Shown: piece by piece, positions 35,254 through 45,745 of the stretch
How positions within the stretch are numbered: position 1 is the stretch's first letter
Layout of the letters: each line of letters starts with the position of its first letter
From: a virus
Virus record (IMG/VR): IMGVR_UViG_3300032333_000196
Location: 1-45,745 of that record
Length of the DNA stretch: 45,745 nt
Strand: one strand, 5' to 3'
Notes under the pieces: model-generated
Databases searched by the model: none
What the model was told of the DNA's origin: nothing
The model's input: the letters and a program-made list of their open reading frames with translations, nothing else
Made by a program: the position numbers and the translations under genes

Positions 35254-35280
35254 AAAAAAAGGGGTCCCGTCTGGGACCCC
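35254..35280 (-). terminator. Terminator between convergent rusA and minus-strand operon
   Basis: GGGGTCCC (35261-35268), GTCT loop, GGGACCCC (35273-35280). On the minus strand the stem is followed by seven T residues (35260-35254), so it mainly ends the leftward operon. Rightward it has only TT. Confidence 0.85.
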
Positions 35281-35304
35281 TTGAGGTGCGCCGTCTAGGA
35301 CGGC

Positions 35305-35409
35305 TCAGTTACGCCACTTGGACGCCACGCATGCGTTGACCAGCAGGCACGTGATGACCGCCAGCATGGCGAGCCAGAGGGCGAAGAAGACGCAAGCCCA
35401 GCGGCTCAC
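35305..35409 (-). CDS. Single-span membrane mini-protein (34 aa)
   Basis: Starts with GTG at 35409-35407 overlapping the TGA of the upstream gene (GTGA). Sequence MSRWACVFFALWLAMLAVITCL then LVNACVASKWRN has one hydrophobic helix with a short basic end. Last gene before the operon terminator. Overlap coupling and hydrophobic pattern support it, but it is short. Confidence 0.45.
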   Translation of the reverse strand: MSRWACVFFALWLAMLAVITCLLVNACVASKWRN

Positions 35410-35921
35410 GCTTGGCCCCCCTTCGTCTGCGTCTGAGCCTTGGCCTTCCGCTTGGCCCAAGCCGCCTTCATGACGGCCGAGTGACGGCGACGCTTGGCAC
35501 GTTCCTTGCGGGCCTCCTTGAGGGCGTCCGTGTCCTTGGGCTTGCGGTCCTGCGTCATCTCATGGAGGTCCATGTAGGCGAAGTTAAGACAGCCGAGGAT
35601 TCGGCCCGTCATCGCCAGTTGGAACTCACGGGGGTTGTCGCCGTGGTGCGTCTCGTTCAGACCGAGGACCGACTTGAGCAGGTCACCCGCCGCCTGCATG
35701 GCGACGTGGATACGCTCCTTGGCCACGGTCACGTCCTGCATGTCCCGCTTGATGACGTTACGCAGACCCTGAAGGGTCCGCACGTCCGAGGGGGACAGAC
35801 GGGGGCGACCGAGGTTCGACTTCATCCGCATCAGGCTGTGGCCGTCTGCGAAGTGCTTGTCCTTGTTGCTGAGGTTATGCGTCGCCGTCGTGGCTTCGCT
35901 CTTGGCTTTGTTGTGACCCAT
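35406..35921 (-). CDS. Basic helical protein, unknown
   Basis: 171 residues after hammerhead ribozyme B; its mRNA would start at the ribozyme's cleavage site. The N-terminus MGHNKAKSEATTATHNLSNKDKHFADGHSLM is polar. The middle SPSDVRTLQGLRNVIKRDMQDVTVAKERIHVAMQAAGDLLKSVLG is helical, and the C-terminus KEARKERAKRRRHSAVMKAAWAKRKAKAQTQTKGG is very basic, suggesting nucleic-acid contact. No motif recognised. Leader ACCACCTTCCCCCCAC before ATG. Confidence 0.6.
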   Translation of the reverse strand: MGHNKAKSEATTATHNLSNKDKHFADGHSLMRMKSNLGRPRLSPSDVRTLQGLRNVIKRDMQDVTVAKERIHVAMQAAGDLLKSVLGLNETHHGDNPREFQLAMTGRILGCLNFAYMDLHEMTQDRKPKDTDALKEARKERAKRRRHSAVMKAAWAKRKAKAQTQTKGGQA

Positions 35922-35947
35922 GTGGGGGGAAGGTGGTTTTGTCTGAC

Positions 35948-36011
35948 GGGCTCGTCAGTGGACGCATGACGTCCAGACAGGGCGGGCTACGGCCCCCGCC
36001 CTGTTTCGCCC
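35948..36011 (-). ncRNA. Hammerhead ribozyme B (type II)
   Basis: Read 5' to 3' on the minus strand: GGGC (stem II, 36011-36008), GAAA (36007-36004), stem III ACAGGGCGGG/CCCGCCCTGT (10 bp, 8-base loop GGCCGTAG), C17 at 35976, stem I TGGACG/CGTCCA (6 bp, loop TCATG), CUGACGA (35958-35952), GCCC (stem II). All conserved core positions are present (C3 U4 G5 A6 N7 G8 A9, G12 A13 A14, A15.1-U16.1, C17). Cleavage is expected between 35976 and 35975. Stem II is the open one, hence type II. Its first base abuts the TAA of gene 36012-36542. Confidence 0.88.
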
Positions 36012-36542
36012 TTAGTTGTCCTTGGACTGGTCACCTCCGAAGTCGAAGCCCTCGGGGAACCGTCCGCTGGGCGGGGGAGTGTCCGTGGGCTTGTCTGCGT
36101 CCTTGCGGGTCTGCGGAGGCTTGTCCGTGAAGCGGTGGGTCGTCTGGTCGTCCATGAAGTCGTCGATGAACTGGCCGACGTCCTCGTGCATTTCCTTGAT
36201 GAGCCCCTGCGTCTTGGACTCGACCTTGACGCCGTGCTTCAGACAGTGCTTGAAGACCATCTCGTCATGCTCGCTCAGTTCCTTGCCCAAGCGGCAGACG
36301 ACCGTGCCCAGCAGGCAGATGCCCTGTCTGAGGAGTTCGGCCTGTTTCATGGCTTCGTCGTCGTCGCCGTCCTTGAGAGCCTCGAGGAGGTTCGTCACGT
36401 TGTCCTTGAGGGCTCCGCTCGTCACCGCCCCGATGACCATCCCGTGGGAGAGGTGGCCGAGGAAGTTGAGGAAATCCTGCGGGGGCATGACGATGCCGTC
36501 CTTCGGGAGGTCCGAGTTGCTGTCTGCGTTGTTGTCGGTCAT
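36012..36542 (-). CDS. Unknown helical protein of the minus-strand operon
   Basis: 176 residues starting MTDNNADSNSDLPKDGIVMPPQDFLNFLGHLSHG; the frame runs further upstream, but the C-rich leader CACCCAGATACAYACGCAC precedes ATG 36542. Helices MKQAELLRQGICLLGTVVCRLGKEL and MHEDVGQFIDDFMDDQ follow, then a Pro/Asp-rich tail (DKPPQTRKDADKPTDTPPPSG). No catalytic motif. Immediately followed by ribozyme B, which would cut its mRNA 38 bases after the stop codon. Confidence 0.6.
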   Translation of the reverse strand: MTDNNADSNSDLPKDGIVMPPQDFLNFLGHLSHGMVIGAVTSGALKDNVTNLLEALKDGDDDEAMKQAELLRQGICLLGTVVCRLGKELSEHDEMVFKHCLKHGVKVESKTQGLIKEMHEDVGQFIDDFMDDQTTHRFTDKPPQTRKDADKPTDTPPPSGRFPEGFDFGGDQSKDN

Positions 36543-36577
36543 GTGCGTATGTATCTGGGTGTGTATCTGGGTGGGTG
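36543..36577 (-). promoter_or_regulatory. CACCCACCCAGATACACACC leader element
   Basis: Minus-strand sequence just before ATG 36542 (CACCCACCCAGATACACAC, then CCAGATACATACGCAC). No SD. One of eight similar C/A-rich leaders in this operon. Confidence 0.5.
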
Positions 36578-36583
36578 GAAAGT

Positions 36584-36901
36584 TCAGCCGTTGCGGTGAC
36601 GGCGATAGAAGGTCTCGAGGAAGATGAGGCTGTCTGCGTTGACGTGGTCGTCGCCAACCTTGCCCTTGTGCACGGACTTGCACAGGCTTGCCAGCACAGG
36701 CTCAAGGGCGGTCAAGCGTCCACCCGTCACCTCCGTCATGAGCACCTGCAGTCGGATGACCGCTCGGGAAAGGTCGGGGGAGTCGACCCCCCGATTGGTG
36801 AAGCCCGTCTTCCCACCCTCGACCGCATCGCCGTATTTGGCGACGACGGTCTTGAGCAGGGCGGTGATTTCAGCCGCATTTTTATTGGAGATTTTTCGCA
36901 T
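36584..36901 (-). CDS. Small helical protein, unknown (105 aa)
   Basis: Start chosen at ATG 36901-36899 (MRKISNKNAAEITALLKTVVAKYGDAVEGG), because a promoter lies directly upstream and the longer frame (to 37012) reads through it and into the preceding gene. SPDLSRAVIRLQVLMTEVTGGRLTALEPVLASLCKSVHKGK is helical. With -10 TATCTT at 36917-36912 transcription would start about four to ten bases before ATG, so the mRNA may be almost leaderless. Confidence 0.62.
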   Translation of the reverse strand: MRKISNKNAAEITALLKTVVAKYGDAVEGGKTGFTNRGVDSPDLSRAVIRLQVLMTEVTGGRLTALEPVLASLCKSVHKGKVGDDHVNADSLIFLETFYRRHRNG

Positions 36902-36957: not shown

Positions 36958-37620
36958 TCAGTATTCGAACGTGAGCATGACGGTGGTCAGGGGTACGTCC
37001 GTGGGTGCACACCCTTCCGTGATGATGTACACGTCACTCGCACCCAGTCGCCAGCACCCAAGCAGGCGGTGGCCCTCGGACACCTTCGTGCTCTTGGGCT
37101 CGGGCATGGGCTGGACCTCGTCAGACAGGGTCTTGTCATGGGGAGGCAAGGCGAGTTCGTTGACCGCCTCGTCTTCGGCGTCCAGACCGTTGCCCCAGCA
37201 TCCACCCGCATGCACGGTCAGCAGGGCGTGGATGACTTCGTTGGACAGACAGTCCTCGGCCCCGTTGGTGATGACCACGTTGCCTAGGTCGATAGACCTA
37301 CGGTGGACTTGGTAGGGGATGCCTTGCGTCCGTGACGTGGCACTGATGATTTCAATCATCTTGTCGCTGTCTGACGGCAGACCAAGGTCGTCGTCGCCTT
37401 CGGCGTTGTCGTCCTCGTCTTCGGGTTCATCGATTTCGATGTCGACGAACTCCATGATGATGCGGAGCATCCCGTTGTAGTCGGTCCCGTCAGACATGGC
37501 CGTCTTCGTGCGAGCGTTGAACCGCTCGAGGGACTTCGGCCTCTGTCTGAGGGCGTTGGCGGCGGCTCCTAGGATGAACCAGATGTTGCCGTCGGGATTG
37601 CGGATGATGGGCTTGGACAT
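36958..37620 (-). CDS. Acidic protein of unknown function
   Basis: 220 residues: MSKPIIRNPDGNIWFILGAAANALRQRPKSLERFNART at the start, an acidic run VDIEIDEPEDEDDNAEGDDDLGLPSDSDKMIEIIS near 85-105, and a C-terminal half GHRLLGCWRLGASDVYIITEGCAPTDVPLTTVMLTFEY. Leader CACCCACCCAGACACACCC before ATG. No known motif; the N-terminal helix (DGNIWFILGAAANALRQ) is similar in character to small phage proteins with an amphipathic start. Function unknown. Confidence 0.6.
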   Translation of the reverse strand: MSKPIIRNPDGNIWFILGAAANALRQRPKSLERFNARTKTAMSDGTDYNGMLRIIMEFVDIEIDEPEDEDDNAEGDDDLGLPSDSDKMIEIISATSRTQGIPYQVHRRSIDLGNVVITNGAEDCLSNEVIHALLTVHAGGCWGNGLDAEDEAVNELALPPHDKTLSDEVQPMPEPKSTKVSEGHRLLGCWRLGASDVYIITEGCAPTDVPLTTVMLTFEY

Positions 37621-37655
37621 GATGGGTGTGTGCTTGGGTGTGTCTGGGTGGGTGA
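37621..37655 (-). promoter_or_regulatory. CACCCACCCAGACACACCC leader element
   Basis: Upstream of ATG 37620 on the minus strand. Same C/A-rich family as 36543-36577. Confidence 0.45.
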
Positions 37656-37662
37656 AGGTGGG

Positions 37663-38022
37663 TTAGGCGGGCTCGTCCTCGTCGGACGGGGCGGTGTCAC
37701 GGACAGGTCGGAAGACCTCAAGGATGGTGTCGATGTCCCAGACAGGGGGCTTGTCTGAGCCGTCTTGGGTCGTGCCCATCACGAGGGCTTTCCCATAGAT
37801 GGGATAACCGTTGATGGTCATGAGCGTGTTAGGCTTGAGAGCCCCCTCGTCATCCACGTAGGCGACGTCACCGTAGGTGTTGAGGTGGACGACGGTGAAC
37901 GTGTCTGAGCCGAGGGCTTCGTTGATTTCTTCGAAGTGACCGATGGTCACCTCTTTCACCTTGAGGGTGGTGCGGTTCAATACCTCTACGAGGTAAGCGG
38001 ACGTTTGCTTGGGTGTGGGCAT
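37663..38022 (-). CDS. DUF3846-like phage protein
   Basis: 119 residues. QTSAYLVEVLNRTTLKVKEVTIGHFEEINEALGSDTFTVVHLNTYGDVAYVDDEGALKPNTLMTINGYPIYGKALVMGTTQDGS resembles the DUF3846 layout (short strand, then VVxL...DVAYVDDEG...PIYGKALVMG). The acidic tail is APSDEDEPA. Role unknown in the family; commonly in phages as an early gene. Leader ACCCACCCAGACATACCCACCCAC. Confidence 0.6.
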   Translation of the reverse strand: MPTPKQTSAYLVEVLNRTTLKVKEVTIGHFEEINEALGSDTFTVVHLNTYGDVAYVDDEGALKPNTLMTINGYPIYGKALVMGTTQDGSDKPPVWDIDTILEVFRPVRDTAPSDEDEPA

Positions 38023-38053
38023 GTGGGTGGGTATGTCTGGGTGGGTGAGAGTG
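38023..38053 (-). promoter_or_regulatory. CACCCACCCAGACATACCC leader element
   Basis: Before ATG 38022 on the minus strand; no SD. Confidence 0.45.
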
Positions 38054-38069: not shown

Positions 38070-38288
38070 TTAGCCCCCCATTTCGATGGCCTGGAACAGG
38101 ACGGACTGTTCCCAGTTGGTCAGGCGTTCTTGGGCGTCGACCTTTTTCAAGGACACCCGAAGGGTGTCGGCCCGCATCCTGTCCGTGGGGATGACGATGC
38201 CTTTGGCAAGGCGGTCAATCCGTGCAGACAGATACTTTTCAGCCGCCGCCCTTTGGGCGGTATTGAGTTGGATGAACTTGGGAGGCAT
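38070..38288 (-). CDS. Small helical protein, unknown (72 aa)
   Basis: MPPKFIQLNTAQRAAAEKYLSARIDRLAKGIVIPTDRMRADTLRVSLKKVDAQERLTNWEQSVLFQAIEMGG is charged and helical with a mid-loop. Short spacing and its own leader (CACCCACCCAGATACACCC, then ACGCACATACC) support expression. No motif identified. Confidence 0.55.
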   Translation of the reverse strand: MPPKFIQLNTAQRAAAEKYLSARIDRLAKGIVIPTDRMRADTLRVSLKKVDAQERLTNWEQSVLFQAIEMGG

Positions 38289-38329
38289 GTGCGTAGGTAT
38301 GTGCGTGGGTGTATCTGGGTGGGTGAGAG
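38289..38329 (-). promoter_or_regulatory. CACCCACCCAGATACACCC leader element
   Basis: Before ATG 38288 on the minus strand, followed by ACGCACATACCTACGCAC. Confidence 0.45.
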
Positions 38330-38653
38330 TTATCGGATTTCAGACAGACCGAGGCCGACCTGTCGGACAGCACGGAGGTGGGCGTCCAAGTGCGGACGCA
38401 TCACGTCCACGTTGATTTGGGCTTCCTCGTAGCGGAGTTCCTTGGCCAGACGGAGACCGCTGTCTGCGAAGGACTCGAGGGTTTCGGCCTGCTCGAGCAT
38501 GCGGTTGAGCATGCCCACGGCCAGCCGCAGGTTGACCACCCGCACTTGGGCTTCCTCACGCAGGGCGTGGGCCTCAGCGACGGCCTTTTCGTGGCGTTTC
38601 TGAGCGTGGATTTCGTGCAGGTCGGGAGCGGTGTTTTCGTTCGTGTTTTCCAT
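38330..38653 (-). CDS. Small coiled-coil protein, unknown (107 aa)
   Basis: Start at ATG 38653 (MENTNENTAPDLHEIHAQKRHEKAVAEAHALREEAQVRVVNLRLAVGMLNRMLEQAETLESF); a further in-frame ATG at 38692 would begin inside the promoter's -10 region. Leader CCCAACCCACCCAGAACC, then ACAAAAAACC. The protein is helical, Ala/Glu/Arg-rich, and ends LRAVRQVGLGLSEIR. No motif. Confidence 0.6.
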   Translation of the reverse strand: MENTNENTAPDLHEIHAQKRHEKAVAEAHALREEAQVRVVNLRLAVGMLNRMLEQAETLESFADSGLRLAKELRYEEAQINVDVMRPHLDAHLRAVRQVGLGLSEIR

Positions 38654-38690
38654 GGTTTTTTGTGGTTCTGGGTGGGTTGGGAATGGTTGC

Positions 38691-38718
38691 ATGATGCCGA
38701 CTTTTTGTCGGTTGTCAA
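38691..38718 (-). promoter_or_regulatory. Internal promoter with perfect CCGAC-AAAAA-GTCGG operator
   Basis: -35 TTGACA (38718-38713), 16-base spacer, -10-like CATCAT (38696-38691). The spacer contains CCGACAAAAAGTCGG (38711-38697), a perfect inverted repeat with 5-base centre. GCAACCAT follows the -10, as at 36912. Confidence 0.65.
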
Positions 38719-38791: not shown

Positions 38792-39457
38792 TCACTCGTA
38801 GCGAGCCCTCTCGGTCGAACGGTTTTCGAACGGCATGTCTTCCAGACAGACAATGTGCTTCACCTCGGGTGACGTGGACCTGTAATCACGGACAGTGCGG
38901 GACGTGACGTGCCCGTCGCCGTGGTCTACGACCACCGTGTCCCCACGGAAGACAAGACCTTCGGTCTTGCGGAAGTAGTCCCGCATGGCTTCGACTACGT
39001 CGACCTGTCTGTAGTCGGTCTTCGTCTTTTCGGCGTAGGCATAGACGGCGTCGGAGACGATGTGCGAGTCCGTGGGGAAACATGCGACCCCCTCATACCA
39101 CGTCGCCCAGCAACCGCCTTCGGCGGGGCTGAACTCGTAGAGTTCGATGCCGTAGAGGGTGACGAACTTGTCCTTGGGCTGCTTCGCAGACAGCAGGGCT
39201 TCGACCTCCTTTTCCAAGAGTGCAGAGCACTCCTTTCGCTTCTCGAGGACCGACTGCCACTTCTGTCTGGACTCCTCCTGTTCGGCTTCAGCCGAAGCGA
39301 CGGCCCGCTGGCGGTCCCACTCGGGGTCTTCCGTGTCAGGCTTGGTCTGCTTCGCAGTCCTCACCTTGACAGACAGCCTGCTGTATTCAGCAGACAGTTG
39401 CTCGAGGTGAAGGTCGAAGGCCGTGAGGTCGTTTTCGAGTTTCGTGATGATGTCCAT
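38792..39457 (-). CDS. Protein with coiled-coil N-terminus and beta-rich C-terminus, unknown
   Basis: 221 residues. Residues 1-90 are helical (MDIITKLENDLTAFDLHLEQLSAEYSRLSVKVRTAKQ, then EAEQEESRQKWQSVLEKRKECSALLEKEVEALL). Residues 100-221 form a separate region with YEFSPAEGGCWATWYEGVACFPTDSHIVSDAVYAYAEKTKTDY and RGDTVVVDHGDGHVTSRTVRDYRSTSPEVKHIVCLEDMPF. The parallel GCWATWYEGVACFPT resembles no family I recognise. Leader CACCCACCCAGAATACCC. Confidence 0.6.
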   Translation of the reverse strand: MDIITKLENDLTAFDLHLEQLSAEYSRLSVKVRTAKQTKPDTEDPEWDRQRAVASAEAEQEESRQKWQSVLEKRKECSALLEKEVEALLSAKQPKDKFVTLYGIELYEFSPAEGGCWATWYEGVACFPTDSHIVSDAVYAYAEKTKTDYRQVDVVEAMRDYFRKTEGLVFRGDTVVVDHGDGHVTSRTVRDYRSTSPEVKHIVCLEDMPFENRSTERARYE

Positions 39458-39512: not shown

Positions 39513-39866
39513 TTAGGCGTTGCGGGACGTGGGGAAGTTGCGGTATTCGACGCAGACCGTCTTTAGACGGCCCTCCATGTAACCAGTGTTGAAGGACCAG
39601 ACGTCGACCGTCATTTCCACAGACGGCTCATTCATGTCCTCGGGGTCACCTACGGTGATTTCCCGCTCGTAGTTGGAGACGGCGAAGCCCCAGACCAGAC
39701 CGTCGAACTCGGCCCAGACAGTCCCCCAATGGGGGGAAGTCTTGACCAGTTCGGTCAACGCACGGACCTTCACGGGGTCCGATAGGACCGCCTTGTGTGC
39801 GTCGGTCAGACGGGGAAGGCTTTTGCCTTCGGGACGGGAGACCAGTTTTCCGATGATGTTGCTCAT
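39513..39866 (-). CDS. Small protein downstream of ribozyme A, unknown (117 aa)
   Basis: MSNIIGKLVSRPEGKSLPRLTDAHKAVLSDPVKVRALTELVKTSPHWGTVWAEFDGLVWGFAVSNYEREITVGDPEDMNEPSVEMTVDVWSFNTGYMEGRLKTVCVEYRNFP. The latter half is strand-rich. Its mRNA would carry the 3' part of ribozyme A at its 5' end after self-cleavage, then the leader CACCCACCCATAATACACC. No motif recognised. Confidence 0.58.
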   Translation of the reverse strand: MSNIIGKLVSRPEGKSLPRLTDAHKAVLSDPVKVRALTELVKTSPHWGTVWAEFDGLVWGFAVSNYEREITVGDPEDMNEPSVEMTVDVWSFNTGYMEGRLKTVCVEYRNFPTSRNA

Positions 39867-39918: not shown

Positions 39919-39980
39919 GGGCTCATCAGTGGAGGTTTCACCTCCAGACAGCACCCCCTACGGGGTTCGCTGTTTCGCCC
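39919..39980 (-). ncRNA. Hammerhead ribozyme A (type II)
   Basis: Minus strand 5' to 3': GGGC (stem II, 39980-39977), GAAA (39976-39973), stem III ACAGC/GCTGT (5 bp) topped by ACCCC/GGGGT with GTAG loop and GA bulge, C17 at 39947, stem I TGGAGGT/ACCTCCA (7 bp, GAA loop), CUGAUGA (39929-39923), GCCC (stem II). All conserved core bases are present; expected cleavage lies between 39947 and 39946. Stem II is open, giving type II. It begins 12 bases after the stop codon of gene 39993-40967. Stems differ from ribozyme B but keep pairing. Confidence 0.9.
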
Positions 39981-39992
39981 TGTCTGACTACG

Positions 39993-40967
39993 TCAGTCGA
40001 ACTTGATGACGTAGCCAGCCTGTTCGAAGACCTTGGTCAGCGACGCCATGCTTTCAGCAGGGGTGTCATGCCGACCGTCCTCGAGTTTCGGGAAGTGCAC
40101 CGTCGAAGACGGTTCCTCAGACATGTCGACTTGTCGACCAGCACAACCGTAGCAGGCCGTCATTCGGTCTGAGACCGAACCCACGGGGGTCTGCATGGCC
40201 CCGACGTTCTCCAAGAAGGCGAAGCCTAGCCTGCGGAACACCGCAGGATGCATCAGCCAAGTGGCGATTTGGGTCAGGTCCAGCATGGTCCCAGCCCGCT
40301 TGATTGTCACCTTTTGGGTGACACAGAGCGGGGTCCGTCTGGCATCGCCCCAAGAGGACGAATGAAACGAAGTTTCAGTGACGATTTCGACCTGTCTGCC
40401 ACCCCGTTCAAGGGCATCGACAATCGCAACCAGTGCGGCCCCTCTGTTGGCGTACTGCTTCGCAGTGACGTAACAGTTGGCGGTCTGCGGGAACAGCAGA
40501 CGGATGACCTTAGTCTCTCCGAGACTATCTTCGTCGGGGTCGACGTCGTAGTGGCAGGGGTCTCCAGCACAGAAGGCACCGACGTCCAAATCTCCACCAG
40601 CCACGTCATGGTCAATGACCATGCCCTGCGTGGTGGATTGAGGCAACTGAGCGTAAGCATGATTGAGGTTTTTGACCCCTTCGGCGTAGCCGACTTTCGT
40701 CATGTCCACGGTGCCTTGGTAACCAAGGCCGTTGTCCCATTCCTCAGACGGCTCCTTCTGGGAAGCCCTGAAAGGGCTCGTGTTGGAGGTGGACTCCAGC
40801 CACTTCGTGAAGGCCGTGGTGTCGTCGTAGTCGAAGACTACGGAGAAACCCTTACCTTTCACGGTCTGGCCGTAGACTCTGAGCCCCTCTCCGAGGGGAT
40901 GGATGACCTTCGTTTTGCCAGTCCCAAACGTAAGTTTGGTCTGCGGGTTTTCAGCGGGGTTAGGCAT
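39993..40967 (-). CDS. Protein of unknown function next to AAA+ ATPase
   Basis: 324 residues. Features: VFDYDDTTAFTKWLE near 50; a run YVTAKQYANRGAALVAIVDALERGGRQVEIVTETSFHSSSWG in the middle, which has the strand-helix-strand feel of a Rossmann or von Willebrand A-type domain; and CYGCAGRQVDMSEEP near 275, a short Cys pair. A vWA-like partner for the neighbouring MoxR/CobS ATPase is plausible because such pairs are common, but the MIDAS motif DxSxS is not seen. Followed at 12 bases by ribozyme A. Confidence 0.6.
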   Translation of the reverse strand: MPNPAENPQTKLTFGTGKTKVIHPLGEGLRVYGQTVKGKGFSVVFDYDDTTAFTKWLESTSNTSPFRASQKEPSEEWDNGLGYQGTVDMTKVGYAEGVKNLNHAYAQLPQSTTQGMVIDHDVAGGDLDVGAFCAGDPCHYDVDPDEDSLGETKVIRLLFPQTANCYVTAKQYANRGAALVAIVDALERGGRQVEIVTETSFHSSSWGDARRTPLCVTQKVTIKRAGTMLDLTQIATWLMHPAVFRRLGFAFLENVGAMQTPVGSVSDRMTACYGCAGRQVDMSEEPSSTVHFPKLEDGRHDTPAESMASLTKVFEQAGYVIKFD

Positions 40968-41000
40968 GTCTGTGGGTGTATCTGGGTGACGGGTGATGGG
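40968..41000 (-). promoter_or_regulatory. CACCCAGATACACCCACAGAC leader element
   Basis: Minus-strand leader before ATG 40967; no SD. Confidence 0.4.
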
Positions 41001-41015
41001 TTGGGCAGACAGGGC

Positions 41016-42509
41016 TCAGAGAGCCCCCTTGTCTGCGGTTTCGGCGTCCTTCCGCTTCTTCTGGAGGGCTTTCAGCCCTTCCGTCAGACGTTCACGGACA
41101 GGCCGCTCTCCAATCTTGGAGAGGACGAAGATGTCGGCCAACCTTCCCATAGGGAAGCCAGCCTCGACCATCGCTCGGGCCCCGTTGATTGCGGCCCGAG
41201 GGGAAATCACGGTCAAGACGTTAGTCTCCCGAGCGATTTTGCGGAAGTCCACGACGGTCTGGCACCATTCCAAGGCCTTGGCCTTGTCTGCGTCAGACCA
41301 CGGCATCGATTTGACGACACTGACAGCGATGCTGTCATCGTAGTCACACTCGAAGTTGGCGAAGCGGTCCAGAGTTGCCATGTCCAACTTGTTGCGGCCC
41401 GAATACTCTCGGTTGGCACCGTTACCGTTGGTATTGGCCGAGGCCAAGAAGCGGAACTTGGGGTGGGCCTTCACTTTCCCATCGGGAAAGTCACAGAACC
41501 CGTTGGCCAAGGCGGCGTTCACAGACAGGAGTACCTGTGGGCTGGACGCATCGACTTCGTCGAACAGGAACAGACCGCCGTTTTCGAAGGCCTTGCGGAA
41601 CTCGGTGGTAACGTAGTTACCATGAGCGTCGTTGTAGCCCATCAGTTGGTAGGTCTTGGCTACCGCACCGCTGAAGTAGAACTTCAGCCCGAGCACCGTA
41701 GCGACCTGCATCCCGAGAGTGGTTTTACCACTCCCAGCGGGACCGAAGACTAGGACGCCGAAGCCACCGATGCGAAGCATCCTAGAGATTTCGTCGAGGA
41801 GTTGGTGCTTCTTGCTCCCCTTGGGGAGGGAGCCGAGTTTGAGTTCGTCGCTGTCGGGAACCTTCGGTTCCTCGGGTTCGTCCTTGGGCTTGGGCTCATC
41901 CTTGGGCACCTTCGGGGCCTTCGGCTCCTGCTTGGGCTTGGGCTGTTCGGGCTTCGGAGCCTTCGGCTCGCCGTCACCCTTCTCCCGAAGGGAGTCGAGT
42001 TCCTTGTCGGTCAGGTCGTTGTACACCTTCTGGAGTTCCTCCAGAGTGTGGTTGGCGATTTTCGAATACGGAACTTCGTTCCGAGTGCACCACTTTCGAA
42101 CGATGTGACGGTTTTTGGAGGTCACAACGGCTTTGCCGTCACGGGGGAGTTCGGGGTCACCTTCGGTGGGTTCGGTGCTGTCTGCGTCCCCTTCACCTTC
42201 GGTGGGTTCGCCGTCCTTGGCACCGTCCTTCCCTCCTTCGGAGGGACTGTCTGCATCCCCTTCGCCGTCGGTCTGAGCACCGTTTTCGGAGCCCTTACCT
42301 TCGGTAGGTTCGCCCTTGGGCTCGCCCTTGGGAGTGTCTGTGGGTGTGCTCGGGTTACCCGAGGCGGTTTTGGACGGCTCAGACGGGCCGTTTTCGGGGT
42401 CGGCGTCGCCTTGGGCATGTCCGTGGGTGCCTGAGGTGTCCGCAGGGGTCACGTAGGCTTCGCCGAGAATGAGTTCGTCGGCGTAGGGGTTTTGGTGGGG
42501 GTTAGGCAT
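41016..42509 (-). CDS. MoxR/CobS-like AAA+ ATPase with low-complexity N-terminus
   Basis: 497 residues. The C-terminal AAA+ module has VFGPAGSGKTTLGMQVA (Walker A near 256), GGLFLFDEVDASSPQVLLSVNAAL (Walker B), RFLASANTNGNGANREYSGRNKLDMATLDRF (sensor 1 / second region) and SPRAAINGARAMVEAGF (arginine/sensor-2 area), as in CobS-type MoxR ATPases known also in cyanophages. Residues 25-125 are Gly/Asp/Glu repeats (EPTEGEGDADS), and about 165-220 Pro/Lys repeats (PKPEQPKPKQEPK). It remodels a partner protein; the 324-residue neighbour may be that partner. First gene of the minus operon. Confidence 0.85.
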   Translation of the reverse strand: MPNPHQNPYADELILGEAYVTPADTSGTHGHAQGDADPENGPSEPSKTASGNPSTPTDTPKGEPKGEPTEGKGSENGAQTDGEGDADSPSEGGKDGAKDGEPTEGEGDADSTEPTEGDPELPRDGKAVVTSKNRHIVRKWCTRNEVPYSKIANHTLEELQKVYNDLTDKELDSLREKGDGEPKAPKPEQPKPKQEPKAPKVPKDEPKPKDEPEEPKVPDSDELKLGSLPKGSKKHQLLDEISRMLRIGGFGVLVFGPAGSGKTTLGMQVATVLGLKFYFSGAVAKTYQLMGYNDAHGNYVTTEFRKAFENGGLFLFDEVDASSPQVLLSVNAALANGFCDFPDGKVKAHPKFRFLASANTNGNGANREYSGRNKLDMATLDRFANFECDYDDSIAVSVVKSMPWSDADKAKALEWCQTVVDFRKIARETNVLTVISPRAAINGARAMVEAGFPMGRLADIFVLSKIGERPVRERLTEGLKALQKKRKDAETADKGAL

Positions 42510-43393: not shown

Positions 43394-45745
43394 TGTCTAA
43401 CCCCCCTACACCTTACGCTCGAATCTTCGATTTTGAGGCTTTTAGTGCGAATAACCCTGCGACCCAGCAGCCTGGTGTCCAGTTCGAAGGGGAGTTTGAC
43501 GCCATCAAAATCACGCTTGACGGCCTGATTTCCCGCCTGTCTGAGATTCAGCGGTCTGACGGCAAGATTGACGTCTCTGCCTTTGACGACACCACCCTCC
43601 TGAGTGACGTCTCGAGTGCGGCCTATTCGAACGTCTACGCTCAAATCTACCCCCTGGTCGCCGAGGCCCTGGACTACAAGAACCAGGCGTCTGGCTTTGC
43701 CACCAACTCGGCCAACTCCGCTGCCGCCTCTGCCCTGTCTGCCGCTGCGGCCCTGCAGCACAAGAACGCCGCACAGGCTGCGATTAACACGGTGAACGGG
43801 TACGTGCAGCAGGTGGCCCAGACGCTCGGCTCCATCAACGTCTCTGTCAGCAACGCCCAGTCTGCGGCCGCACAATCCGAGCAGAGCAAGCAGGCGGCAC
43901 TGGAAGCCAAGCAGAACGCCGAAGAAACCCTTGGAAGCGTGCAGTTGCTACAGCAGTCCCTGGCCAACCAGTACGACAACATGCTGGATGCGGACATGAA
44001 TCTTGGTGACGTCTCGAACAAGGCCCATGTATTGTCGAACCTCGGTCTGGACGGCGGTAGCGACAATGAGCGTTCGATTTACAACCGTTTCAAGGCGTTG
44101 TACCACATGTATGGGAACTACAACGGAGGCACGCTGATTGGTTCAGTACAGACCATGTACCCTAGTGCTGATTCGCTCCTGTACCATGTTTTCGGCCTGT
44201 CATTCAACCAGGAGAGTGGCCTGTTTATCAATGGACCAGCGTTTGGCGTAGGATACACGTTTGCAAGGGACAACCTTGGGCAAGGTCTTGAAGAGGACAA
44301 CGCCCAGAACAAGAATCGAGACCAGCGTATCGAAATCCTGAAGAAACGAATGTCTGCTGTTTCTTCCATCTTTAGGACGACGCTGCTTGAGACTGGCAGT
44401 AACTTTGGGTACAACGGAGACAATCGAATCGTCACCTTGCAGGATTTTGCCAACGATTTCGGCGGTTTGTTCAGTTACAACGTCAATGGATGGACCAGCG
44501 GTGCAATCCTCTCCACTGTCACGGAGCAGTTGAATCTTCGTTTCGACACCCCAAACGACGGCAAGAAGTACGGCATCCTGAACGGAAACTGGGCTTCCAT
44601 CGACGAAAGCCCGAGCGGAATCCCTGATTACGACAACTTCAAGGTCTACGGGGCTGGCGAGCAGGTGTTGTTCGGTGGCAGTTTCTACCGTTTCAACGCT
44701 TTCATCGGTGCCGCAGGGTACGGTCCTGACACCCATGCTTATGCCTGGACGATGATTGGCGGTGGCGGTGGTGCGTCGCTTCCGATTGACATCAGCGACG
44801 TCACTGGTCTGCAGACGGAGTTGGACGGCAAGGCGTTGTCTTCGCATGGTCACGGCATCGCCGATGTAACCGACCTGCAGACGGCCCTGGATGGGAAGGC
44901 GTCCTCCTCCCATTCACACGGAATCTCCGACGTCACTGGGCTGCAGACCTCCCTGGATGGGAAGGCTTCGTCGTCTCACACGCATGCCATTTCCGCCGTT
45001 ACTGGCCTCCAAGACGCCCTGGATGGCAAGTCTTCATCGTCCCACACGCACGCTATCTCAGCCGTGACTGGTCTGCAGACAGCCCTTGATGGCAAGGCTG
45101 CCACGTCCCACACCCAGGCCATCTCGACCATCACGAACCTGCAGAACACCCTGGATGGCAAGGCTTCCTCGGTCCACACGCATGCGATTGCGGACGTCAC
45201 GAACCTGCAGACGACCCTCGACGGCAAGGCCTCCTCGTCTCATACGCACACGATTGCCAACATCACCAACCTGCAGACGTCCCTGGACGCCAAGGCCTCG
45301 ACGTCGGCCCTGACGTCTGGTCTGGCTGGCAAGGCGAACACCTCGCATACTCACGTCATCGCAGACGTGACGAACCTGCAGACCACGCTCAACGGCAAGG
45401 CTGCGACGACCCATAGCCATTCCATTTCCGACGTCACGGACCTGTCGACGACCCTGTCTTCCAAGGTCCCGAACGAGATGGCCTGCTCGACCACGTTCGA
45501 CAAGGACGTCACGGTCACGGCTCCCAGCGGCATCACGGTCCTGGCCTATGACGGCGGGGATGACGGCACGGTGACGGTGACTGGGGCTGTCGGCAACAGG
45601 TTCTGCTTCTTCCAGGCCGCTTCCGCCACCAACCGAATCCGCTTCAACTCGGTGATGAACGTGGAGGACAAGTTCTTCACGAAGGGTCCGAAGTCCTACG
45701 TCGAGGCCATCGTCACAACCGAGGGCGTCGTCGTTCACGGCGACC
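43394..45745 (+). CDS. Tail fibre (3' end outside window)
   Basis: 784 residues are visible with no stop. N-terminus MSNPPTPYARIFDFEAFSANNPATQQPGVQFEGEFDAIKITLDGLISRLSEIQ is the fibre-attachment type. An Ala/Gln coiled region follows (SAAASALSAAAALQHKNAAQAAIN, about 110-185). Then a globular region (about 190-465). From about residue 465 nine degenerate 20-residue repeats like SHTHAIxDVTxLQxxLDGKA run, after which a C-terminal domain starts (VPNEMACSTTFDKDVTVTAPSGITVLAYDGGDDG). Host recognition is expected at the missing end. Confidence 0.82.
44797..45445 (+). repeat. Tandem 60-bp repeats encoding HxH fibre units
   Basis: About nine units of DVTGLQTALDGKA plus SHTH. HxH is present in most (HGH, HSH, HTH) but one unit reads SHTQ (around 45110), and one interruption (STSALTSGLAGKA near 45297-45335) lacks it. 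In T4 gp37 HxH pairs bind iron along the trimeric needle; the same is inferred here. Two units contain GTCTGCAGAC (44807-44816 and 45071-45080). Confidence 0.7.

What the first reader, a model, noticed from the sequence alone, without database searches (positions are those of the whole stretch)
39919..39980. Complete type II hammerhead ribozyme in a phage operon gap (ribozyme A)
On the minus strand every core element is present in order: stem II 3' strand, GAAA, stem III with terminal U-C, stem I, CUGAUGA, stem II 5' strand. Stem I is 7 bp, stem III 5 bp plus a 5-bp cap, stem II 4 bp. Cleavage is expected after C at 39947. Hammerheads are established in bacteria and phages, but this location between a 324-residue unknown gene and a 117-residue gene suggests self-processing of a polycistronic phage mRNA.
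Basis: partly seen in the sequence, partly recalled or inferred. Interest (0 to 1): 0.92.

Follow-up and report, generated by a model that had tools for sequence, protein, structure and literature searches.

The report
Self-cutting RNAs between phage genes
This virus of bacteria carries two tiny self-cutting RNAs (hammerhead ribozymes) just after stop codons in one operon, apparently to chop a long message into separate gene messages; the kind is known, but one of the two can form a second, mutually exclusive fold of its catalytic core, seen in many related phages, that could act as a release or shut-off switch.

Summary
39919-39980 (-) folds exactly as a type II hammerhead (z -4.25). A covariance model built only from other phages finds it at 57 bits (E 5.5e-15) and a sibling, HHR-B, at 35948-36012 (-), at 58.3 bits; the next hit has E 0.02. 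Rfam's type II model scores HHR-A 24.8, below its cut-off of 37, and reports none of 38 such ribozymes in nine other loci.

They lie on the coding strand, up to nine per genome. They start at the upstream stop codon: first stop base at -12..0 in 308/468 sites against 52/1236 control positions; often the stop codon supplies the near-invariant A at -1. In roughly an eighth, HHR-B included, core CUGAN can pair with N'UCAG just after stem II; N7 and N' are complementary in 107/110. That fold excludes the catalytic one.

Best reading: ribozymes that cut phage operon mRNA between genes, some with a built-in release or shut-off hairpin. The kind is known (Perreault 2011); the alternative pairing and stop-codon fusion I found nowhere described. 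Cleavage is untested.

The parts
39919..39981 (-). HHR-A, type II hammerhead; 39981 is the near-invariant A just before stem II; predicted cut between C17 (39947) and 39946
   Evidence: fold z -4.25; model R1 57.0 bits, E 5.5e-15; Rfam RF02276 24.8 bits, below cut-off
35948..36012 (-). HHR-B, second type II hammerhead, core CUGACGA; A(-1) at 36012 is the last base of the upstream TAA stop codon; predicted cut between C17 (35976) and 35975
   Evidence: descriptor scan; model R1 58.3 bits, E 2.1e-15; sequence
35943..35958 (-). Alternative hairpin of HHR-B: core CUGACG 35958-35953 with CGUCAG 35948-35943, loop AGCC; excludes the catalytic fold
   Evidence: predicted fold of the downstream product; N7/N' complementary in 107 of 110 relatives
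39993..40967 (-). 324-aa DUF7192 gene upstream of HHR-A; the same gene-ribozyme junction occurs in five other phages
   Evidence: Pfam PF23822 E 2e-26; synteny
41016..42509 (-). 497-aa AAA ATPase gene (phrog_249, CobS-like), upstream in the operon
39513..39866 (-). 117-aa gene of unknown function, first gene after HHR-A
36012..36542 (-). 176-aa gene whose TAA stop abuts HHR-B
   Evidence: sequence
35406..35921 (-). 171-aa gene, 26 nt after HHR-B
35259..35282 (-). terminator-like hairpin with T run near the end of the operon

Best explanation
HHR-A and HHR-B are active type II hammerheads that cut the minus-strand operon mRNA in cis, once after the DUF7192 gene and once about 4 kb later, releasing a 3,971-nt middle message (39946 to 35976). 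The upstream product of each cut ends a short way past its stop codon in the stem III hairpin with a 2',3'-cyclic phosphate; the downstream product begins with a 5'-OH on the first base of the stem I hairpin. Both new ends are hairpin-capped, which would let adjacent genes differ in mRNA stability and translation. In HHR-B the GUCAG after stem II lets the spent core refold into a second hairpin flush with stem I; I think this mainly releases the upstream product and makes the cut final. Shown here: anatomy, conservation, orientation, position, covariation. Inferred: cleavage, end protection, and that the refolding follows the cut.
For: Model hits at E 1e-15 for both. All of the ribozymes in each of 18 records are on one strand, 2-9 per record, in one block; 101 of 103 loci with two or more have one strand only. 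Starts tied to the upstream stop codon, 308/468 against 52/1236. DUF7192-ribozyme junction recurs in five diverged phages. A(-1) in 468/493 and loop I U in 464/493, both outside the search patterns and present in both window ribozymes. N7/N' complementary 107/110, 71/74 after clustering. Downstream product folds into the second hairpin in 105/106. Clustered prophage hammerheads cleave in vitro and one set in E. coli (PMC3088659).
Against: No cleavage or transcript data for this phage. HHR-A lacks the N'UCAG partner. Nearest-neighbour energies favour the alternative fold by a median 2.6 kcal/mol even before cutting, so it may block rather than follow cleavage. Nine annotated phages with homologues of the query genes have no such ribozyme, so the device is dispensable for those genes.
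Confidence: 0.7

Rival explanations
1. The alternative pairing is an OFF switch that acts before cutting. A ribosome finishing the upstream gene covers the 5' strand of stem II, the core pairs with N'UCAG instead, and the ribozyme cuts only when translation of the upstream gene is sparse, as in an attenuator.
For: Stop codons overlap or touch stem II in many members. The alternative fold is the predicted MFE in 90 of 106 uncut RNAs that have it, by a median 2.6 kcal/mol.
Against: The energies leave out the hammerhead core and tertiary contacts. The subclass does not differ clearly in stop-codon position from the rest. The helix stops at the stem I boundary (pairing across it is rarer than expected), as suits the cleaved product. 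HHR-A's stop codon is too far away to cover stem II.
Confidence: 0.25
2. The ribozymes make RNA circles or spliced RNAs by cutting and rejoining, for example of the block between HHR-A and HHR-B.
For: Two same-strand hammerheads bracket eight genes; hammerheads can ligate (own knowledge).
Against: No such products were detected for prophage clusters (PMC3088659). Each cut leaves half-ribozymes on different ends, and HHR-B's alternative pairing would oppose rejoining.
Confidence: 0.05
3. They are 3'-end protecting hairpins or relics that no longer cut.
For: No biochemical data exist for these two.
Against: Every core base, A(-1) and the loop I U are intact in both; core letters stay fixed while stem and loop letters vary over the relatives (stems were selected for in the scan).
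Confidence: 0.05
4. The CUGAN/N'UCAG inverted repeat is a DNA site for a protein and has nothing to do with RNA folding.
For: Symmetric DNA sites also keep matched halves.
Against: One half is fixed to the ribozyme core; departures include U/G, a pair in RNA, twice and C/A never (small numbers).
Confidence: 0.05

Closest known systems
Type II hammerhead ribozymes of bacteria and prophages (Perreault et al. 2011, PMC3088659; Rfam RF02276 Hammerhead_II)
   Same: Same core, same permutation (open at stem II), GUC cleavage site; clusters flanking single genes or gene blocks in prophages; operon processing already proposed there
   Different: Scores below RF02276's cut-off; 4-bp stem II and 6-7-bp stem I with a conserved A(-1) and loop I U, and no sign of the loop I-tail pseudoknot reported for most type II motifs; starts on or near the stop codon; a subclass has a covarying alternative pairing of the core
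Hammerheads of viroids, whose core can be held in an inactive pairing (own knowledge)
   Same: Core sequence pairs elsewhere and is then inactive
   Different: There the rod-like circular genome supplies the partner; here a 5-nt sequence right after stem II does
Transcription attenuators (own knowledge; likeness of working only)
   Same: Two mutually exclusive RNA folds next to a translated stretch
   Different: The outcome would be RNA cleavage, not termination; not shown

Membership tests
Type II hammerhead ribozyme | Core boxes CUGANGA, GAAA and UH at the cleavage site | tested here: met
   CUGAUGA/GAAA/UC in HHR-A, CUGACGA/GAAA/UC in HHR-B
Type II hammerhead ribozyme | Three stems, I and III closed by loops, II open | tested here: met
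   MFE fold of HHR-A; model alignment of both
Type II hammerhead ribozyme | Tertiary contact between stem I and stem II | tested here: inconclusive
   A(-1) and loop I U conserved and present in both, but no excess of the loop I-tail pseudoknot in relatives
Type II hammerhead ribozyme | Self-cleavage after position 17 | not testable with these tools
   needs in vitro transcription
Rfam RF02276 (curated family) | Score at or above the gathering cut-off of 37 bits | tested here: not met
   HHR-A 24.8 bits, HHR-B not listed; an operational cut-off, and 38 similar ribozymes in nine loci give no gathering-level hit either
Phage operon hammerhead group described here (model R1) | Significant match to a model built without the window | tested here: met
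   57.0 and 58.3 bits, E 5.5e-15 and 2.1e-15
Core-pairing subclass (HHR-B) | N'UCAG directly after stem II with N' complementary to N7 | tested here: met
   HHR-B: C7 with GUCAG
Core-pairing subclass (HHR-A) | N'UCAG directly after stem II with N' complementary to N7 | tested here: not met
   HHR-A: U7 followed by ACGCC

The most novel reading that the evidence does not exclude
Phage operon hammerheads are translation-aware or self-finalising switches: the stop codon of the upstream gene is built into the ribozyme, and in a subclass the catalytic core covaries with an adjacent sequence to form a second, inactive fold that decides when the mRNA is cut or when the cut becomes final.
Probability: 0.4. 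Interest if true: 0.8.

Novelty: new variant of a known kind. Interest (0 to 1): 0.6.

Why it matters
What hammerheads do in bacteria and phages is open; a 2023 paper (PMC10085705) says the biological reason for their gene associations is still unknown. These data give a specific, testable picture: ribozymes fused to stop codons split phage operon mRNAs into hairpin-capped messages, and some have an evolving alternative fold of the catalytic core. They also show that the current Rfam type II model misses this phage group at its cut-off, so annotation undercounts it.

Tried and rejected
Rfam at gathering cut-off: no hit. Loop I-tail pseudoknot: no excess over shuffles. Alternative hairpin as a general property: members without N'UCAG show no more core pairing than shuffled tails, so it is a discrete subclass; the imperfect CUG/CAG hairpin predicted after HHR-A is therefore not claimed. 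Extension of the alternative helix into stem I: rarer than expected. Attachment to particular genes: flanking proteins fall into about 320 clusters, apart from recurrent DUF932, DUF7192 and AAA genes. A replicate of the covariation in GTDB genomes: only two pattern hits, and model R1 does not match those loci, so there is no replicate. Relatives of the DUF7192 protein in IMG/VR by direct search and of the region in INPHARED by megablast: none. Solved structure related to the DUF7192 protein: none significant. Ribozymes in nine annotated phages, most with named hosts: none. Other hammerhead permutations in the window: none. No structure prediction was run, since the question is an RNA.

Full report
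THE THING ITSELF. The minus strand of 39980-39919 reads GGGC GAAA CAGC-GA-ACCCC-GUA-GGGGGU-GCUGU C^ UGGAGGU-GAA-ACCUCCA CUGAUGA GCCC in essence (exact letters). Its minimum-energy fold is the type II hammerhead secondary structure (-30.1 kcal/mol, z -4.25). Rfam's type II model matches it end to end, but at 24.8 bits against a cut-off of 37. My own descriptor scan of the whole window, all three classical permutations and both strands, returned two elements only: this one (HHR-A) and HHR-B at 36011-35948 (-), with core CUGACGA. A covariance model from 36 ribozymes of other phages gives 57.0 and 58.3 bits; the third hit has E 0.02. The stems in that alignment covary fully, but the sequences had been chosen by a scan that requires stems, so that table is not independent evidence.

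ITS PLACE. The window is an IMG/VR virus record of 45,745 bases. The 9.7-kb region that holds the operon has no megablast match in INPHARED. The minus-strand operon reads: AAA ATPase (CobS-like), DUF7192, HHR-A, genes at 39513-39866, 38792-39457, 38330-38692, 38070-38288, 37663-38022 (DUF3846), 36958-37620, one near 36584-36900, 36012-36542, HHR-B, 35406-35921, then a terminator-like hairpin at 35282-35259. HHR-B starts on the base after a TAA stop codon and ends 26 nt before the next ATG. HHR-A starts 12 nt after a TGA stop codon and ends 52 nt before the next ATG. Cutting at both would free a 3,971-nt RNA.

RELATIVES. After a structural filter they gave 539 ribozymes (493 distinct cores) in 351 loci, against 0 in 2.2 Mb of shuffled sequence. 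Outside the patterns, the base before stem II is A in 468/493 and the first loop I base is U in 464/493. Both of the window's ribozymes have both. [quoted passage not shown] that role is inference. The loop I-tail pseudoknot reported for most type II motifs shows no excess here.

GENE CONTEXT. Where a reading frame of 70 codons or more ends near the ribozyme, its stop codon begins at -12..0 from stem II in 308 of 468 sites, against 52 of 1236 control positions in the same contigs (Fisher p about 4e-159; related contigs are not independent). 99 are exactly at -2 (UAG sharing A(-1) and the first G of stem II) and 48 exactly at -3. In the GGGC set the next start lies a median 26 nt beyond the ribozyme (simple gene caller). 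In 18 whole records the pattern occurs 2-9 times, always on one strand and clustered, with 0 matches to the reversed control pattern. Flanking proteins are nearly all different from phage to phage, but the DUF7192-ribozyme junction recurs in five other phages, and a ribozyme precedes a DUF932 gene in many. MW202803.1, a complete public phage genome with the AAA and DUF7192 genes, has an unannotated ribozyme upstream of these genes in the same orientation, with the alternative pairing (CTGACGAGGCTGTCAG). Nine other annotated phages tested have none.

THE ALTERNATIVE PAIRING. In HHR-B stem II is followed by GUCAG, which pairs with CUGAC of the core; with G8-C it makes a 6-bp hairpin CUGACG-AGCC-CGUCAG. 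In the two locus sets not selected for it, a perfect N'UCAG stands at +1 in 49 of 402 members; shuffled tails give close to none and other offsets have few. Where UCAG follows at +1, the base before it is complementary to N7 in 107 of 110: C/G 53, U/A 54, U/G 2, U/U 1; 71 of 74 after clustering similar cores; Fisher p 8e-19 on the clustered C/G, C/A, U/G, U/A counts. At the homologous site before the DUF932 gene, different phages have C7 with G or U7 with A. N7 is the one freely variable base of the CUGANGA core, so its covariation with a base outside the ribozyme points to a real second helix. That helix uses core bases 3-8, so it cannot coexist with the catalytic fold.

HOW IT PROBABLY WORKS. 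Predicted: the alternative helix ends flush with stem I, and the downstream cleavage product folds into two adjacent hairpins from its first base in 105 of 106 members that have the pairing. Inferred: after cleavage only the 4-bp stem II and tertiary contacts hold the halves together, and the alternative helix would displace stem II, releasing the upstream mRNA and preventing rejoining. The rival is that it forms first and blocks cleavage: nearest-neighbour energies favour it by a median 2.6 kcal/mol even in uncut RNA, but they leave out the hammerhead core and its tertiary contacts. A ribosome on a stop codon that touches stem II would cover GGGC and part of the core, which would couple cleavage to translation; this is a geometric inference from the ribosome footprint (own knowledge), strong for HHR-B and weak for HHR-A.

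WHAT IS KNOWN. Perreault et al. 2011 (PMC3088659) found type II hammerheads in prophages flanking genes or blocks of genes, showed cleavage of three clusters in vitro and one in E. coli, and proposed operon processing. Its text has no occurrence of 'stop codon', 'ribosome' or 'alternative structure'. A 2017 review and a 2023 paper still call the role open. The paper library is open-access only, so an earlier report of the alternative pairing cannot be excluded.

VERDICT. HHR-A alone is a new member of a known kind. The stop-codon-fused, operon-splitting group to which it belongs, and the core-pairing subclass shown by its sibling HHR-B, make the whole a new variant of a known kind.

Noticed in passing
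whole window, e.g. 39945-39951 and 35974-35980: The 7-mer CAGACAG/CTGTCTG occurs 116 times (69 on +, 47 on -) against 8.9 expected, 25 per 10 kb against a median of 0.8 in other loci and 0-1.3 in the nearest relatives. Both ribozyme cleavage sites fall inside CTGTC^TG. It looks like a DNA-level motif, unexplained.
   Followed up: partly
36557-36577, 37634-37654, 38027-38047, 38305-38325, 40972-40992 (-): A leader motif close to CACCCACCCAGATACACCCAC precedes several minus-strand genes that show no obvious Shine-Dalgarno sequence; 0 expected by chance.
   Followed up: partly
38718-38691 and 36939-36912 (-): Two promoter-like sites (TTGACA, 16 nt, CATCAT or TATCTT) with similar flanking letters (CTTGACAA..GTCGGC..TGCAACCAT), possibly internal promoters of the operon.
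   Followed up: no
L390 (MW202803.1) 1865-1921 +: Unannotated type II ribozyme with the alternative pairing in a complete public phage genome; the annotated start of UOF82150 (1902) lies inside it, and an in-frame ATG at 1947 is more likely.
   Followed up: yes
about 44790-45450: Imperfect tandem repeats of roughly 60 nt seen by eye in the sequence, as in a repetitive fibre-like gene.
   Followed up: no
L086, L130, L169, L194, L270 and others: A hammerhead with the core-pairing sequence commonly precedes a DUF932 (phrog_1221) gene in diverged phages.
   Followed up: partly
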